A stretch of 64,000 nucleotides of DNA from Caenorhabditis remanei (lineage: Eukaryota > Nematoda > Chromadorea > Rhabditida > Rhabditidae): contig NC_071332.1 of assembly GCF_010183535.1 (NCBI RefSeq), forward strand, positions 8,060,001-8,124,000. Direction: 5' to 3'. Positions 8,645 to 17,600 of the stretch are shown here, piece by piece (within the stretch, counting starts at the first letter, position 1; each line of letters begins with the position of its first letter). The notes under the pieces were generated by a model. The model searched no databases. It had not been told where the DNA came from and saw nothing but the letters and a program-made list of their open reading frames with translations. A program made the position numbers and the translations under genes.

Positions 8645-11600
8645 TCAGAAAAGCTGATAAATTAGGATTGCAAAGAAGATGACCCATGAATTCTGGAGTT
8701 GGGTCAGAGCAACTTTCGTAGTCGTCTGAACGGGTGAAGCAGTAGTTGCGTTGATGAAGTTGTCCGGGACAAAAAGTCTATCGTTGTAGGTCAGAAGAAG
8801 ATCTAGAATAGCTCCATTGGTCCATCCGAATCCATCCTGAAATAATGAGGTTTTCGATCTACAGTACGCCTTGTAATGCTTCTACCTGCACATCATACTC
8901 TCCTCCAGATCCTGGCTGTGGATAGCTTCCAATGACATTGTACTGAAAGTAATTAATTGAGATTTTGATTTCATTATCTTCCGGTTTGCTTCTAAAAGTA
9001 AAGTGTGGAAAGCTCAAGCTGTCATCACAGATTTATGCTAATTTGCAACTCCTAACAACTTGTCTTTCCTTTTGTGTGCGACACTAGAATTTAGAAGGGG
9101 GCTCAAGAGTTGCTGACAGACGGCTACGGGTCCAATAAACACACGATAAGTGCTTCGATAATTGATGACACGAATGAACACGCGAGAACAAATGAAGTGA
9201 AGGTGGAGGAAAACGGGAGGGATGGGATGAGTGACAGTGTCTTTTTTATCGTATCAACACGTTCTTTAATATTCATATTTGAAAATTTTCAGTGTTGAGA
9301 GAGTGTGAAGACATCCTGAACACCTGATAGGTGTGAACTACACTTAGCTGTGGCTGATGATCGTTTCATTGTTCCAGGAGTTTTTGAGATAGGTGCGAAG
9401 TGATGTATATCTAAACTGTGAGTTCTCTGGAGTTCACGAAGAAGAAATATAGGAAATCGAAGAAATATCAGAATCCGAAAAGGGATCATTAGGAAATAGG
9501 AAGTACAGGTGCTTTGATAAAGATCGTTGTAATTAGATCTTCATAATTAGACGGTGCATCTATTTCTAGGTGACGCCTGACATCTGACGTCTATAAGATT
9601 CTGAATCCTGTTCCACCATTTCTCCTTTTTGTTTTCATCGTCATCTACCGTTTTCTTATTATTCGATTTCAACCCGAGTTGCGTTCCATCGAAATTAAGA
9701 GGTGAATGAAGACAGGTAGAGACGAAATTGCTAAACGATGAAGAACAAAACGAAAAGAAGGTCATGATCATCGATAAGTGGTGCCAATCAAACCATTGCC
9801 ATTCTCTTCGCCTTCTCGGTCTTTTTTCTCGCGCGTCGAGATTCATTGTCATCTTGTACTACTGTATCTATTAAGAAAAGAACCGCTTTAGTCAAGTGAT
9901 CCTTCACTCTTACCTCTGCCAAAACACCCCGATTCTTTATGTTTCCCGCTCGAAAAAATCAACTTCTCATCGCTTTGACCCTTCTCAAAAGTCAGTAAGG
10001 GATATACCGTAATCGTCACCTGCTTCACTTCCCCCCATAGTTATATCACTAAGCCTTCCGATAAACATCTCTACATGCGTACCATTAACCTGGGCCTGCT
10101 GCAAACGACTACACTATCAGGATTGAGGCCATGGCGGATTAGTGACGAGAGTGAGGTAACAAGTCAACACACAATGACATAATGGATTTCTATGAACGGA
10201 GATGTTATTTCTATTGTACACCTGTTACCACCCACTTTTGTTCAGTAAAGAAACGTTTGTCACTTAATTGACAGGTTCGGTAAAAGATCAGGGGGGTTTC
10301 CTATTGTAGATCATCCGGTTTAGACATGCTCCATCGATCATCAGATGCCTCTGCACTTCGTCATACGTGGCTTCCTCTTCAAACCGAGTCTCATACAATT
10401 TCCTATTCAAATTTTCTCGAAACTTCCACTTCCATCATCGTGTCACACAACTCGATCATTGGCCGGCTCCAGTATCCTACCGTAGTAGATATGTGGTCCC
10501 ACTCCTTCTCTGACACAAAATCATGGCGCTTCAGGGCACACACACGCGATTTAACACAATCTACATAATCGCAAGAATAGGCGAATCTGAGAAAGATGCA
10601 TGTGAAGAGCTTATGTGTTAGTAAACGGAGGGGGACCCTCTTAAAATCATATTTACATATGATTTGGAGTGGGAAAATATAGAAAAGAGATGAAGAATAA
10701 GGAGAAAGTGGAGGAGGATGTATAGTGATGATTATGATGATGATGATGGCGGTGGTTCTGGTGCTTCTCTATTCTTTTGTCAGAAGTTGTTGAACTTCGG
10801 ATGGGGGAAAAGGGATGGGAAAGACGTCCAAAGGCAATGAGTGTTTTACAGAGAGATAGACAGTCCTGGGGGTTGAGAATTCCAGAATCATGATAACGAA
10901 ATGTATATCAGAATTGAAGCGCTCTCCATTGACACAAAGAAATTCCGGCACTGTTCTAGAACGCCGGAACGAAGAAAAAATCCCGGAACGAAAAAAAAAA
11001 ATCCCGGAACGAAAAAAAATCCCGGAACGAAAAAAAAATCCCGGAACGAAAAAAAAATCCCGGAACCAAAAAAAAATACCGGAACCAAAAAAAAATCCCG
11101 GAACCAAAAAAAAATCCCGGAACCAAAATTTTCATTCTATTTTTTGAATTTTTTCGTTTTTCTTTCAATATGTGTTTTATAATTTATTTGAATAAGCTTT
11201 TTTTATTATAACATGATTTATTTTAACATTTTTATTATAACAAAATGCGATATTTAGTGTTTGTTGGAAAAGAATACAGAATATAACTAAACTTGGGAAG
11301 AAAACTGTAGATATAAGAAACAATTTTTAAACTTTTTTGAATTCTTCTTCTTCTTTTTCTTCTGGCTGGAGGATAACTTCTACTTCTTCTTCTTGTTCTT
11401 CTTCTTGTTCTTCTTCTTCTTCTTCTTCTTTTTCTTCTTCTTGTTCTGGCTGGAGGGTGTCTGAATCCGGAACTGGAGGGTAGACCTCAATGACATCCAC
11501 CTTGATGTCACCCTTCACACGGATGTGGGTGACTTTATTGACAGCCATCCGGAATTCATAAATCTTGCTCCATTCGTCATTTACCGTGATCTGAAAAAAT

Positions 11601-14600
11601 AATTTGAAGAAATGTAAAATATAAACGCCCCACCTCAAAAAATGAGGACCGCACAATAATTGACACCCGGATGAATGTCCTCTTTTCCAAAAAGAAGTAG
11701 CGCCGTTCTTCTAGGTCATAAATTCCGGAGTCGAACACGGAGTTGAAGACGAAGGCCTGAAAAAGATATTATTCAGGAAAAGTAAGAAGTTGAGTGAAAC
11801 TAACCATTTCGGAGGGGCGTGCGCATATATGTAAAGGAATGCATAGTTTTCCCTTTTCACAGGCGAGGTCTATATCGAATCTGAAATCCAATACCAATTT
11901 TCAAAATCCGGTTATTAAATTCTCACCGTCCCCTAAAACGGCCTTCGACGAGGAACTCCGTGCCTTCGGTATGATCAGCGACATCCATCGTTGTATGAAA
12001 TTCCGGTGGAGGCGGAATAACTTCCTCTTCCATATGGTTGAAAGGTATCTGAAACAATTGTCTCAAAACTATGAGAGAATCTGCAAAACCTCACCTTTTT
12101 ATAACGGGAATAAGAGAACCGGCCACGGAACTTCGCATCGGATTGCAGTATGAAGAAGAAGAAGATGAGAAGAAGCGAAATGGAGACCTTCATGTTATCA
12201 ACTGAAATAAACTCAGAAAATAGAGTTGCTAATAGTTTAAAAAAGTTAATTTAAAAAAATAAACAATGCTTTATCGTAATAAATTGGAAGGGAAAGAAGA
12301 AAACGAAATACGAAATCACCCACCGCCCTGGGTATTTATACGACTTGTTGGACTTAGAACAGCTTGACTCCAGAAACCTCGCAAACTACATTGGTCCTCT
12401 TTCAGATGAAGCCACCGAGGTTGCAAAGAAAGGCTTGGAGTTTCTTGCACGGTGAGAAAGTAATTATTTAAAAGCTAGTAACTAGTTCATTCTAGATATG
12501 ATCTGGTTCCCAACACACGCTGGTGTGAGACATGCAAGGACAGAATGGTTCTGTCTGTTGATCGTAGCACTGCTCACGACAAGCACATATGGCGCTGTAA
12601 AAGCTGCCGGAAGCAAACTGGTTATGGAGAAAAGAAAGCCATTCGGTAATAATACAATTTTTTAAATAAAATTTGAGATGTTAATATCAGGGCCGGGACG
12701 TATTTCGAAAATAGAAAGTTAACAATACAACAAACACTCTTCATTGCTGCTGATTGGGTAGAAAACCCCGGGAAGCCCATTGATGATGTTGTCGCTCAGT
12801 TTAAAACAAGCAAGCAGACAGTGGTTGACCTACAGGAAGACTTTCGTCGAATGACAGAGCAGTGGTTTGTGCGGGAAGGCCAACGACACCTCACGCTTGG
12901 CGGACCGGGTAAGTTATTGTTATGTTATCTTATTGTTGCTAATTACGTTTACGCAATATAATTACGTTTTCTTACAGGAAAGGTGGTGGAAATAGACGAA
13001 ACACTCGTGGTGAGGGCGAAGTACAACCGAGGCCGGAATTTACGACGCAAGCAGATTTGGGTGTTTGGGATGCTGGAAAGAGGAAGCAAGAAGGTGGTTA
13101 TGTTCAGAGTACCAACACGAGACGCAGTAACACTCATTCCAATTATTGAAAAATACGTGCTGCCAGGTAATTAATTCGAAATTCTCCTTTGCCAAAGTTT
13201 TTGTTCAGGTACAACAATAATGTCGGACGGATGGGCTGCTTACAGAGGCATCTCAAACATTCCGGGATACGGTCACGGCGTAGTGAACCACAAATACAAT
13301 TTTATCAATCCTAACGATCGCTCCATCCACACTCAGGGGATCGAAGCAACGTGGAATGCACTGAAGTCAAAACTAAAGCCCAGATTCGGTACACCAGAAA
13401 ATCGCCTTGAAGGCCACATGTATAATTACATGTGGAGACGATTCTACGATAAAGAAAAACTCCTCAATCGCTTGCTAATTGAAATGGGCAGTTACCGGCG
13501 AGTAGATTCATTTGAAGACATTCATTTTTCTGATTCTTCTTCTTCTGAAAGCTCTCCTGAACGTTCCCTTCCTGCTAATTCTCCATTGCCACTCTCACCT
13601 TCCCCATCATCTTCTCCTCCAGATTCACCTTCTTCGGGAGGCGAATCATCGTCTGCAGAAGATGACAACGGAATTTATGTCAGAGATCAGGACAGGAACA
13701 AGAAAATAGTGTATCAAGAGAAAAACAGTGAAGATGAGTCCAATACTGAACAGGAAGATGAATCTGATACGGAATCGGAACATGGACCTCAAAATGAATC
13801 GGAACCTGAACCTCAAAATGAATCGGAACCTGAACCTCAAAATGAATCGGAACCTGAACCTCAAAATGAATCGGAACCTGAACCTCAAGATGACTCGGAA
13901 CCTGAACCTCAAGATGACTCGGAACCTGAACCTCAAGATGACTCGGAACCAGATATTGGTAATGATTCCTGTTAATTTTACCTGCATAAATTTCATTTTT
14001 CAGGTGCTTCTTGTGCATGCCCTTGTGAGCCTCGGTCAAGCAGGACTCGACACAGAGAACATCATCGGGAACAACACGTATCTGATTCGTCTCAAAATGG
14101 ACCAACAGTTGAAGACCAAACAACCGAACCACCTTCCGTTGCTGCAGAACATGTTCCACGGGGTTTAAGACGGAAACTCCCAACGGAGGCACCCACTGCT
14201 GTGCAGACTTCCAAAACTAATTCTGCCCTTAACTCCAAGGCCACCAAGCCGACAACAAAGGCACCTCCAAAACCGAAACCGACAACGAAGCCCAAGCCCA
14301 ACAAATCGGTCAATCCTCCAATCACAAACGCTCCAAAAACCACAAAAGCTCGAACAACTAAGAAAGCTCCGAAGCCCACGGAACCTTTGAAGCCCACGAG
14401 ACCTCCAAAGACAACAAAATCTCCGAAGCCCACGAGACCTCCAAAGACAACGAGACCTCCAAAGACAACGAAATCTCCGAAGACAACGAAATCTCCGAAG
14501 ACAACGAAAGCTCCAAAATCAACGAAAGCTCCGAAGGCAACGAAAGCTCCGAAGACCACGAAAACCCCTAAAGAAAAATCTAACCAATCCAAAAAAAAAG

Positions 14601-17600
14601 GATAATTATCATGTATTACCTTGTTTATCATGTATTTCAAATAAAGATTATAGATCCGCAAAAATCATGTTATAATAAAAAAAGCTTATTCAAATAAATT
14701 ATAAAACACATATTGAAAGAAAAACGAAAAAATTCAAAAAATAGAATGAAAATTTTGGTTCCGGGATTTTTTTTTGGTTCCGGGATTTTTTTTTGGTTCC
14801 GGTATTTTTTTTTGGTTCCGGGATTTTTTTTTCGTTCCGGGATTTTTTTTTCGTTCCGGGATTTTTTTTCGTTCCGGGATTTTTTTTTTTCGTTCCGGGA
14901 TTTTTTCTTCGTTCCGGCGTTCTAGAACAGTGCCGAAATTCCTACCTTCTCTCTCTTTCAATAACGGTTATTGTCTGTTACAGATTAGAGCTGTGTATCA
15001 GTAATTATCACTAGAATAAATTGATATCAAATTGATTTCAGTCCTCCTCTTTTTCTTCAAAACACCTCTAAAAATTACCTTCTCCCACATGTGTCCAGTC
15101 TCGTAGAATACTCGGAAGTTGCCCATAACCCATTTGGATGCAATCAGGAATCCCTGAAAGAAAAACTCGTTAACACCGTCATCTGTTCCAAGTGAAAATT
15201 CTAATAGCAAGTGTGGTTAACACCTCTATTACAGTGTTTCTTCTCGCCGACACATCTTCCGGTCTTCCGGTTTTAATTGGGCGAGAATGGTGGCGAGAAC
15301 TCAATCAAAACAGATTGGTTTTCACACTATAGTGACACAGACACACACAGTTTAGTACAACTGAGTTTACCGATGAGCAGTTGGTGTGCTCTTACAGTTA
15401 CAATGCATATAATTGTTCGCGTGTTCATTGTACAAGTGGGTGATGTTGAGAAGACGGAAAGAAACGATACAGAGAAAGAGATGGACGAAAATGAAGGGAC
15501 CGTTCTGATTTTTTGATCTCGATTTTATTTAAAAACTGGATGAAAACCTATTAGGAGTCTGATACAGCCTATTACAGACGAAAGTGCAGTAAGAATTCAA
15601 GCAAATTGACCTAATTATGAGCTGCTATACAACTTTGATTTTAGAACAATTTGTTGTTTCTAAACAACTTTTTTCCAAATAAGCTCCGATATATTTCATT
15701 CAGAAACTAATTGTTTTTGGGTTTCAGGGAACAAAACACAATTCCACTGGAGTATTTTCAGACAAAGTTATTTTGATTTGATAAAACTGTTCTGCTCTTT
15801 TTCCGAAGTTTTCAGAAATTTCAAGCATACGACTCTTAGCTATCACCCCTAACTGCTAGTTGCTAAATGATACATTGATACCCGCGTACTCTTATATGTA
15901 CATATTTGCACAAAAAAAAGAACATAAAACTCGACACTTCTGTTCGATGACTCCACTCATCACAAGTGTTTTTTCTCTCATAGAAGGGTCTGGGAACTTT
16001 TTTCTTTCTTACCTGATCTTGCATTTCAGGATTCGCTGATTTTCTCAATCCTTCAATAATCATGTGATTGTTTGGACTCCATCCGTTGGGGAAATCCCAT
16101 TGTTCTGTGCTTTCTTGTGACATTGAGGAAGGAATTCCTCCTGGATAATTGAAAACTCCCATCTTCTGAAAACAAGAAAATTGTTAAGTTTCACTTTCAG
16201 ATGTGAGACTTACACTCATATAATCGAAGACTTTCTGTGACTTTCCAGTGTTCAAAGTGTTGTAACAATTAGTGAATAGTGGCACTGCAGTACTCGTATA
16301 GAATCTTGGATTATGAGATTGAGTTCTCAGGTTGAAATCGTACCAAGTTCCATCGGTTCTATTATAGAATACATTTTGAACAGTGTCTCGAAAAACTGCC
16401 CTTCTGTTTCGGAAGATTTGAGAATTGGTTGTATCTCCAACTTGCTCGTAAAGGTACTCCATTATATCCATATTCCAGCAGAGAAGTCCATTCAAGTCAA
16501 CTGGCAGAACTTTGGTTGTTTCGATTGTTGTCAAAGATTTGTAGTCAGAGAACCATCTGGTTGAGAAGTCCCATCCAGACTCGGCGGCACTTGCAAGATC
16601 TTGATAGAACTGTTGCTTATCCATTCCATTTGCCAACTTGGCCGAGTTCACTGTATCAACCCGATAAGATTCTGGGCGTGGAACATTACTTGGAGTCTTG
16701 TATTGATAAACTTCGAACTCTTTTCCATTCAAATTCACTTTCACTGTTCTCTTCTCATTCCAGAAATTGAGTTCTTTCAAAAGAGTTGGCAAAAGTTCGG
16801 CAATGAAATCCTTGTCATTTGTCGCCTCGTAAAGCTCATAAACCATTGCAGAAAGGAGAGGAGGTTGGCTTCTCTGAAGGTAATAAACACGTCCTCCGTT
16901 CGGAACAAAACCGTGTTGATCGACCATTGTGGCGAGATTTCTGATCATACTTTTTGTTGTGTTATACATTTCACAAGCGATCAATCCCTGAAAAAGTTTA
17001 ATAAAATCTGAAACTCCTGATGCTTTGCAAACCTTGATAATCCAGTAAGCATCCCAATAATAAAATTCTCTGAAACGACCTCCGGGAACGATGAAATTAT
17101 TTGGAACATAGAGAAGAGAGTATCGAGAAGTGTGTTGCTCAATAGCTGGATCGATCTTGCGACACAAAGTTTTCCAGATTCCATTCAGTTTATAAGCCCA
17201 TTCACGGAGAGCTGGATCGGCGATAGTTGCCAATTTTGGAGGCTTCTCCTGCCAGTCGTCTGGGGTACAAGCGATAAGTTCAGTACCGGCAGCGCTGAAA
17301 CATGTTGGTTCAGATGAGGAACTTGAGCTAACTCATCAATTAGTTGTATACAGAAATCTGAAATGCTATGATACTCACCTGAAATACTCATTAACAAATG
17401 CTTGAACATCAGTTTTATTCAAATTCGCAGCTGTTGTATTCCCGAATTTGGCGTACCAAGCATTCGATACTACCACTGAAATGTAAGTTATTTCATTTCA
17501 ATTCCCCTTCTTTTTCTTCTTACATGGATCCTGTTTCATTGGCATATCAACAAACTCTTTTGAATCATTGTAAAGTGCATGATAGTTTACAGCGGCCAAT

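What the first reader, a model, noticed from the sequence alone, without database searches (positions are those of the whole stretch)
10947..14934. Merlin transposon carrying a secreted galectin-like gene as cargo
Seen directly: 273-bp inverted repeats, an 8-bp target duplication (GAAATTCC), a zinc-ribbon plus DDE transposase on one strand, and on the other a five-exon gene with a signal peptide and a galectin fold that keeps most sugar-contact residues. Merlin elements are known as single-gene transposons; I know of no described Merlin with a lectin. A secreted lectin is of no obvious use for transposition, so this may be captured host DNA or a selected cargo, comparable in idea to cargo genes in worm Maverick elements. 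The intact frame and short introns suggest the gene is still functional.
Basis: partly seen in the sequence, partly recalled or inferred. Interest (0 to 1): 0.88.

Follow-up and report, generated by a model that had tools for sequence, protein, structure and literature searches.

The report
Merlin transposons carrying a secreted galectin
In a Caenorhabditis worm, a lineage of "jumping genes" thought to need only one gene also carries a sugar-binding protein made for export that shows strong signs of being kept by selection, and several of their jumping enzymes also look addressed to the cell's export route, which is unexpected for DNA-cutting enzymes.

Summary
Confirmed and extended. Window 10947-14934 is a Merlin element: 273-bp TIRs without mismatch, 8-bp TSD, an IS1595/Merlin DDE transposase on + and an intact five-exon galectin gene with a signal-peptide-like start on - (Pfam 8e-16). 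It is not a lone capture. In this genome (inferred C. remanei), galectins of one clade sit in elements with four different end sequences (A-D): 17 of 25 galectin-like loci that I grouped lie with Merlin transposase sequence or ends. A second element complete by its ends (family B, transposase 59% identical) has the same head-to-head layout and exon pattern. Between the window and a diverged Merlin copy the galectin shows dN/dS 0.035 over 85 codons; last-exon pieces of two other copies show 0.32-0.34. Unexpected: transposases of five Caenorhabditis Merlin lineages begin with signal-peptide-like N-termini; family A keeps a relic, absent from the window copy, whose transposase has no evident start. 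Best reading: an old two-gene Merlin lineage whose galectin, and probably transposase, enter the secretory route. What the lectin does there is inferred; a role for the element, or host benefit, remain open. No expression or binding data were available.

The parts
10939..10946 (.). target site duplication, left (GAAATTCC)
14935..14942 (.). target site duplication, right (GAAATTCC)
10947..11219 (+). left terminal inverted repeat, 273 bp, begins GGCACTGTTCTAGAACG
14662..14934 (-). right terminal inverted repeat, no mismatch to the left one
10964..11128 (+). 19-bp-period tandem array inside the left TIR, 8.6 copies (CCGGAACGAAAAAAAAATC); possible transposase binding sites (inferred)
14753..14917 (-). 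the same 19-bp array inside the right TIR
12095..12193 (-). galectin exon 1: signal-peptide-like [20 protein letters not shown] and spacer
11927..12048 (-). galectin exon 2
11805..11880 (-). galectin exon 3, with PLHICARP (H and R contacts)
11634..11756 (-). galectin exon 4, with VFN..EER (N, E, R contacts)
11327..11590 (-). galectin exon 5, end of the lectin domain and Glu-rich tail
12194..12341 (+). short spacer between the two genes; the transposase's first exon known from a relative is absent here
12330..12451 (+). transposase reading frame, first recognisable exon (DNA homology to the C2:17918 fragment from 12342)
12496..12645 (+). transposase exon with CxxC..CxxC zinc-ribbon-like motif
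12691..12908 (+). transposase exon
12978..13166 (+). transposase exon, first catalytic Asp (VEIDE)
13209..13958 (+). transposase exon, second Asp (SDGW), Glu (GIEATW), then acidic repeats
14004..14605 (+). transposase last exon, basic Ser/Thr/Pro-rich tail and stop

Best explanation
The element belongs to a Caenorhabditis Merlin lineage that acquired a galectin gene long ago, probably once and as genomic DNA, and has kept it as a second gene. The galectin is made with a signal peptide and works in the secretory lumen or outside the cell as a galactoside-binding lectin. Transposases of this clade commonly begin with a signal-peptide-like stretch as well, so at least part of the element's cycle probably passes through the endoplasmic reticulum; the galectin most likely acts for the element there, by binding glycans on the transposase's Ser/Thr-rich tail or on cell surfaces. 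Shown: element structure, recurrence, one clade of element galectins in a small tree, strong purifying selection between one pair of lineages. Inferred: use of the signal peptides, secretion, sugar binding, single origin, any partnership with the transposase. How the transposase would return to the nucleus is unknown; the ER-made worm transcription factor SKN-1A (PMC11265709, abstract start seen in the listing) shows that such a return exists.
For: Recurrence: 17 of 25 galectin-like loci, grouped by hand, lie with Merlin transposase sequence or ends. Family B element C5:19247138-19251921 with TSD GATATTTT, same head-to-head layout and five exons as the window; its galectin equals P0124, from another C. 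remanei record, except for 3 residues. Family D: 4 of 4 fetched loci with identical 8-bp TSDs. Six element-type galectins form one clade, 99/97, against 7 other rows. Selection: window against the C3:13273 copy, 27 of 52.5 synonymous and 6 of 202.5 nonsynonymous sites changed, dN/dS 0.035, Fisher 2.5e-16. Fold: a family B homologue matches galectins, TM to target about 0.8. Transposase N-termini.
Against: No expression, localisation or binding data. A related sub-clade (P0005/P0006, P0009) has the signal-like transposase, yet no galectin match lies near P0009's locus (the places of P0005/P0006 were not checked), so galectin may be dispensable. In the transposase tree the galectin label is not clustered (3 changes; 500 of 500 shuffles as low), so a single origin rests on the galectin tree. 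The dN/dS case rests on one 85-codon pair and 34 codons of a chimeric copy; last-exon pieces with the tail give only 0.34 and 0.32. Family B's transposase signal is weak (20% of 946 random ATG frames score as high), family A's is a relic followed by a stop (6.8%), and the C. brenneri model P0004 has a different first exon (39%). The acidic galectin tail is missing in B and C. brenneri, so a tail-to-tail contact is not general.
Confidence: 0.58

Rival explanations
1. Host-benefit cargo. The galectin is kept because it helps the worm (for instance by binding glycans used by toxins or microbes), and the element profits from its host's fitness; it has no role in transposition.
For: Strong purifying selection fits any function. 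A Merlin locus without a nearby galectin match exists (P0009). A defence role of worm galectins is recalled; some of the six papers listed (titles and abstract starts only) deal with toxin responses and glycan receptors for toxins.
Against: The gene recurs inside elements of several families with diverged transposases; if one host copy gave the benefit, retention inside elements over such divergence would not be expected.
Confidence: 0.25
2. Passive capture. The galectin is host DNA trapped between Merlin ends and copied along.
For: Introns are present; many nonautonomous copies keep only galectin fragments (families A and D).
Against: dN/dS 0.035 at dS 0.87; full forms with signal-peptide-like starts in families A, B and C; same exon pattern in A and B.
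Confidence: 0.05
3. The hydrophobic N-termini of the transposases are not used as signal peptides: they are gene-model choices in T-rich DNA, or are bypassed by internal starts, and only the galectin is exported. The element is then an ordinary nuclear Merlin with one exported extra protein.
For: Models P0004 and P0011 of closely similar C. brenneri proteins differ in their first residues; 0.5-20% of random ATG frames are as hydrophobic, depending on the family; a transposase must reach DNA; no signal-peptide predictor was on hand.
Against: Five Caenorhabditis lineages score in the top 0.5-1.8% of 946 random ATG frames; in P0009's locus residues 1-71 lie in one reading frame without a stop; in family C the start is the first Met after a stop and is followed by an intron of ordinary form.
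Confidence: 0.3

Closest known systems
Merlin superfamily (related to IS1016/IS1595 insertion sequences)
   Same: GG-starting TIRs, 8-bp TSD, DDE_Tnp_IS1595 transposase (criteria from passages of PMC8101967)
   Different: a second, lectin gene; long acidic and basic transposase tails; signal-peptide-like N-termini in several Caenorhabditis lineages; zinc-ribbon-like CxxC..CxxC
Galectins of nematodes (two-domain, e.g. Toxascaris leonina galectin 4hl0)
   Same: Pfam PF00337, fold, PLHIS.R motif also in the host N-terminal domain at C2:7622
   Different: single domain, signal-peptide-like start, stacking W replaced by Y or F in A, B and D, often an acidic tail; separate clade 99/97 in a 13-row tree
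Galectin-domain proteins of porcine adenovirus and lymphocystis disease virus
   Same: a mobile genome that carries a galectin-fold domain (fold hits)
   Different: viral proteins of other architecture; only the fold was compared; the attachment role is recalled
Worm Maverick elements with cargo genes
   Same: transposable elements with extra genes in Caenorhabditis (recalled)
   Different: large polymerase-encoding virus-like elements (recalled); here a 4-kb cut-and-paste element

Membership tests
Merlin | TIRs of 24-462 bp with terminal 5'-GG | tested here: met
   273 bp, GGCACTG; families B, C and D start GGCTCT
Merlin | 8- or 9-bp TSD | tested here: met
   8 bp in the window, in 16 of 20 fetched family A loci, family B, 4 of 4 D loci and one C copy
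Merlin | DDE_Tnp_IS1595 transposase with D, D, E | tested here: met
   Pfam E 6.3e-17; VEIDE, SDGW and IEATW read in alignment A2
Merlin | no Zn_Tnp_IS1595 domain (as described for most members) | tested here: inconclusive
   CxxC..CxxC is present; the Pfam Zn ribbon is below its cut-off for P0007 (E 0.0013) and not hit by the window protein; PMC8101967 reports the domain in two C. briggsae proteins (passage)
Merlin | single transposase gene (usual description, not a definition) | tested here: not met
   second gene, galectin
Galectin | galectin domain by profile | tested here: met
   PF00337 8e-16, above the cut-off. The genome-wide exon-by-exon PF00337 search (37 matches) did not list the window's separate exons
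Galectin | galectin beta-sandwich | tested here: met
   model of family B homologue P0124, pLDDT 74, galectin-7 E 1.8e-9, TMt 0.81; the window protein itself was not folded
Galectin | sugar-contact residues (set recalled from human galectin-1: H, N, R, N, W, E, R) | tested here: met
   H, R, N, E, R kept in the five full-length element-type galectins; the first N is S or C, as S in the host N-domain; W is Y, F or W
Galectin | beta-galactoside binding | not testable with these tools
   needs a binding assay
Galectin | no signal peptide (usual, recalled, not a definition) | tested here: not met
   by hydropathy only: N-termini of A, B, C, P0001, P0002 score in the top 0-3.4% of 946 random ATG frames

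The most novel reading that the evidence does not exclude
A transposon with an extracellular phase: both element proteins are exported, the basic transposase tail packs the excised DNA, and the galectin attaches the complex to galactosylated surfaces of other cells (germ cells, embryos or mates), so that a cut-and-paste element spreads between cells or individuals without a virus particle.
Probability: 0.08. Interest if true: 0.97.

Novelty: new variant of a known kind. Interest (0 to 1): 0.8.

Why it matters
Small cut-and-paste transposons are thought to need one gene. A lineage that has kept an exported lectin under strong selection, and whose DNA-cutting enzymes look addressed to the secretory route, would mean that these elements have a life outside the nucleus, or a bargain with their host. 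Either can be tested in genetically tractable worms.

Tried and rejected
Rejected: galectin as chance flank between two unrelated Merlin ends (recurs in families A-D); single recent capture. A retro-copied gene is disfavoured by the introns. Led nowhere: literature. Merlin + transposon + galectin: 12 papers, 11 listed, none on topic by title and abstract start; galectin + Caenorhabditis remanei + transposable element: 0 papers. That I found no such element in print rests on these searches of open-access text; Repbase and the original Merlin paper were not seen. The fold search of a transposase (P0005) gave Mos1 and retroviral integrases at low TM-score.

Own error: three transposase exon ends were one base short, so its transposase dN/dS values are void; one search replaces them. 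The galectin values agree in both. The family C galectin that I spliced from the C6 copy begins in a truncated copy; P0125 replaced it from then on.
Full report
OBSERVATION. Window 10947-14934 is bounded by 273-bp inverted repeats without a mismatch and by the 8-bp duplication GAAATTCC. The plus strand encodes a transposase with the Pfam domain DDE_Tnp_IS1595 (E 6.3e-17), the domain of Merlin and IS1016-type elements; the minus strand encodes a five-exon, 227-residue protein with a hydrophobic N-terminus and a galectin domain (E 8e-16). The corrected spliced transposase frame gives 676 residues and ends at a stop at 14605.

HOST. The window is G000:C5:8060001-8124000. Named C. remanei proteins P0009, P0125 and P0130 lie on contigs of 21,501,900, 25,790,997 and 17,877,849 bases, the lengths of C6, C4 and C3 here, so G000 is inferred to be C. 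remanei.

THE ELEMENT FAMILY. The left-end sequence has 43 matches in the genome, a lower bound. Of 20 loci fetched, 16 show both terminal motifs and identical 8-bp duplications; L072, L081, L082 and L087 failed that strict motif test. All 20 were chosen by the TIR matches. Nine of the 20 hold a piece matching window 11220-11590, the galectin's last exon with its 3' flank (in L071 61 bp of flank only). The copy at C2:940905-943152 is over 99% identical along the galectin but has lost its start codon and is joined in frame to a transposase-tail fragment, so in family A only the window holds a complete galectin gene among the sequences that I read.

OTHER FAMILIES. Family B: C5:19247138-19251921, ends GGCTCTGTTCC, TSD GATATTTT. 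It carries a Merlin transposase (59% identical to A over 317 positions) and, head to head with it, a galectin with the same five-exon pattern (introns 43-47 bp). The spliced product, 173 aa, equals P0124 (CRE_22010, named C. remanei in the database) except for 3 residues. Family C: ends GGCTCTACCG; copies at C3:15032046 onward, C6 about 2300400-2303793 and C2:15921553-15923749 (the last with TSD AAAATTTT and without a galectin hit). Galectin and transposase lie tail to tail. The full galectin is P0125 (GCK72_013805), matching C4:13553669-13554556 in five pieces, and C4:3043519-3044331 and C4:3314047-3314859 likewise; its last 25-29 residues read into antisense transposase, which shows that the two adjoin. 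Family D: L024, L025, L027 and L028, 0.9-1.5 kb, ends GGCTCTG, identical 8-bp duplications in 4 of 4, with galectin exons 4-5 read in L024 and L025 and matching galectin pieces in L027 and L028; I found no transposase of this family.

COUNT. I grouped by hand the galectin matches (29 rows; 40 rows) into 25 loci; both searches score only the best candidates. Seventeen lie with Merlin transposase sequence or a Merlin end (C5:8071, C2:941, C3:13273, C6:2384, C6:21393, C1:4660, C2:12505, C4:875, C3:2697, C5:19251, C3:15034, C6:2300, C4:3043, C4:3314, C4:13553, C4:5248, C108:40821). Eight do not, or could not be read: C2:7622 (a two-domain galectin, taken as host), C4:7288, C6:8244, C5:21438, C4:6421, C4:10810, C4:7039, C2:8164. 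For C4:3043, C4:3314, C4:5248 and C108 the link is by position in search tables only, for C4:13553 by the read-through of P0125; C3:13273 shows one end. Eight rows that match only the antisense tail of P0125 were not counted as galectin.

COMMON DESCENT. Galectins A, B, C, D and the C. nigoni and C. brenneri homologues form one clade with support 99/97 against 7 other galectin rows, two of them domains of the C2:7622 gene; sampling is thin. In a 20-row transposase tree the Caenorhabditis and Heterodera Merlins form one clade (100/99); A, B and C fall in two of three Caenorhabditis groups, beside C. brenneri and C. briggsae proteins whose neighbours I could not read; the third group (P0005/P0006, P0009) has no galectin known to me. 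The galectin label is not clustered in that tree (3 changes; 500 of 500 shuffles as low). One gain with loss or undetected galectins is my reading, not a result. Identities for A-B, A-C, B-C rank alike: transposase 59, 48, 48%; galectin 32, 30, 26%.

SELECTION. Window against the C3:13273 copy, 85 codons (3 more with gaps set aside): 27 of 52.5 synonymous and 6 of 202.5 nonsynonymous sites differ, dN 0.030, dS 0.868, ratio 0.035. That copy now has a 5-base gap in exon 4, so most of the divergence was built up in a lineage whose galectin worked. Exon 4 of the C6:2384 copy gives 0.023 over 34 codons, but its transposase differs from the window's by only dS 0.027 (136 codons, ratio 1.4, Fisher 0.54), so that copy joins galectin and transposase of different ancestry. 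Last-exon pieces of C2:942 and L081, Glu-rich tail included, give 0.34 (77 codons) and 0.32 (74 codons). Four other transposase comparisons give 0.71, 0.37, 0.17 and 0.46, of which only 0.17 is significant. Against the C2:941 copy 1 change in 180 codons is uninformative.

FOLD AND SUGAR SITE. The family B homologue P0124 was folded (11 sequences, mean pLDDT 74, pTM 0.66); the 50 best PDB matches shown are galectins (first galectin-7, E 1.8e-9, TM to target 0.81). H, R, N, E and R of the sugar site (recalled from human galectin-1) are kept in the five long element-type galectins; the residue two after H, N in human galectin-1, is S or C here and S in the host N-terminal domain too; the stacking Trp is Y, F or W.

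SIGNAL-PEPTIDE-LIKE STARTS ON THE TRANSPOSASE. Caenorhabditis Merlin proteins P0005/P0006, P0007, P0009 and P0011 begin with a hydrophobic stretch. The transposase search found 141 proteins, of which 120 were listed. Among the 122 Met-starting proteins on hand, 3 of them galectins (one row dropped), these five and one unnamed row (P0050) are the only transposases over 2.7 in N-terminal hydropathy; 12 of the 120 rows are named Caenorhabditis, so 5 of 12 against 1 of the others. Family C encodes MIFCFILIFLLPHQLLTVEWSNGTLSR in a first exon, with an intron before the conserved part. A family A fragment at C2:17918 keeps a similar exon followed by a stop codon; the window copy lacks it. Against 946 random ATG frames of the window, the five clear lineages (C, P0005/6, P0007, P0009, P0011) score in the top 0.5-1.8%, the family A relic 6.8%, family B 20%, and the C. 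brenneri model P0004 39%. No signal-peptide predictor was available. The tails of A, B, C and P0005 have an acidic stretch and then a basic end rich in Ser, Thr and Pro (last 150 residues: 38-55% S/T/P, net charge +28 to +41); P0008 has the basic end with little acid; models P0004 and P0007 lack the basic end, and P0009 and P0011 were not measured. Such tails could bind DNA or carry O-glycans; both are inference.

WHAT IT DOES. Taken together: an old two-gene Merlin lineage, galectin kept by selection and sent to the secretory route, transposase probably also passing the ER. I think an element-serving role most likely, host benefit second, passive capture unlikely. The ER-to-nucleus path of SKN-1A in C. 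elegans (abstract start of PMC11265709) is a precedent for an ER-made nuclear protein.

NOVELTY. PMC8101967 (passages read) describes Merlin TIRs, TSDs and odd domain fusions, including a C. brenneri transposase with WD40, but the terms lectin, signal peptide, accessory, additional ORF, second ORF and two ORF were not found in its main text. The paper searches named in Tried and rejected found no Merlin with a galectin. I file it as a new variant of a known kind.

Noticed in passing
window 11523-11925 against L011/L060 (C3:13273): Synonymous sites of the galectin differ at 27 of 52.5, but aligned noncoding positions at only 21 of 136. Exons overall are about as diverged as introns, with most changes silent; possibly escape from small RNAs that target mature mRNA, or recombination. 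Unexplained.
   Followed up: partly
C6:2384017-2385163 (L016, L061): Chimeric copy: galectin exon 4 from a diverged sublineage joined to a transposase close to the window's.
   Followed up: partly
C2:940905-943152 (L069): Nonautonomous copy in which a transposase-tail fragment is fused in frame to galectin residue 2, with a second inverted galectin 3' piece.
   Followed up: partly
window 10964-11128 and 14753-14917; ends of families B, C and D: A, B and C ends hold 19-bp-period tandem repeats, D about 15-20 bp; the B, C and D units share a motif like ATCGRG.
   Followed up: partly
protein P0010 (Heterodera trifolii): Gene model joining a saposin-like region (below the Pfam cut-off) to a nematode Merlin transposase; may be a fused model or another exported partner.
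   Followed up: no
protein P0025 (C. briggsae): Merlin DDE fragment joined to an FTH domain, a possible host-transposase fusion or fused gene model.
   Followed up: no
P0001, P0127, P0131 (C. nigoni): Three related galectin records in C. nigoni, two of them short, as expected of a mobile gene; genomic context could not be read.
   Followed up: no
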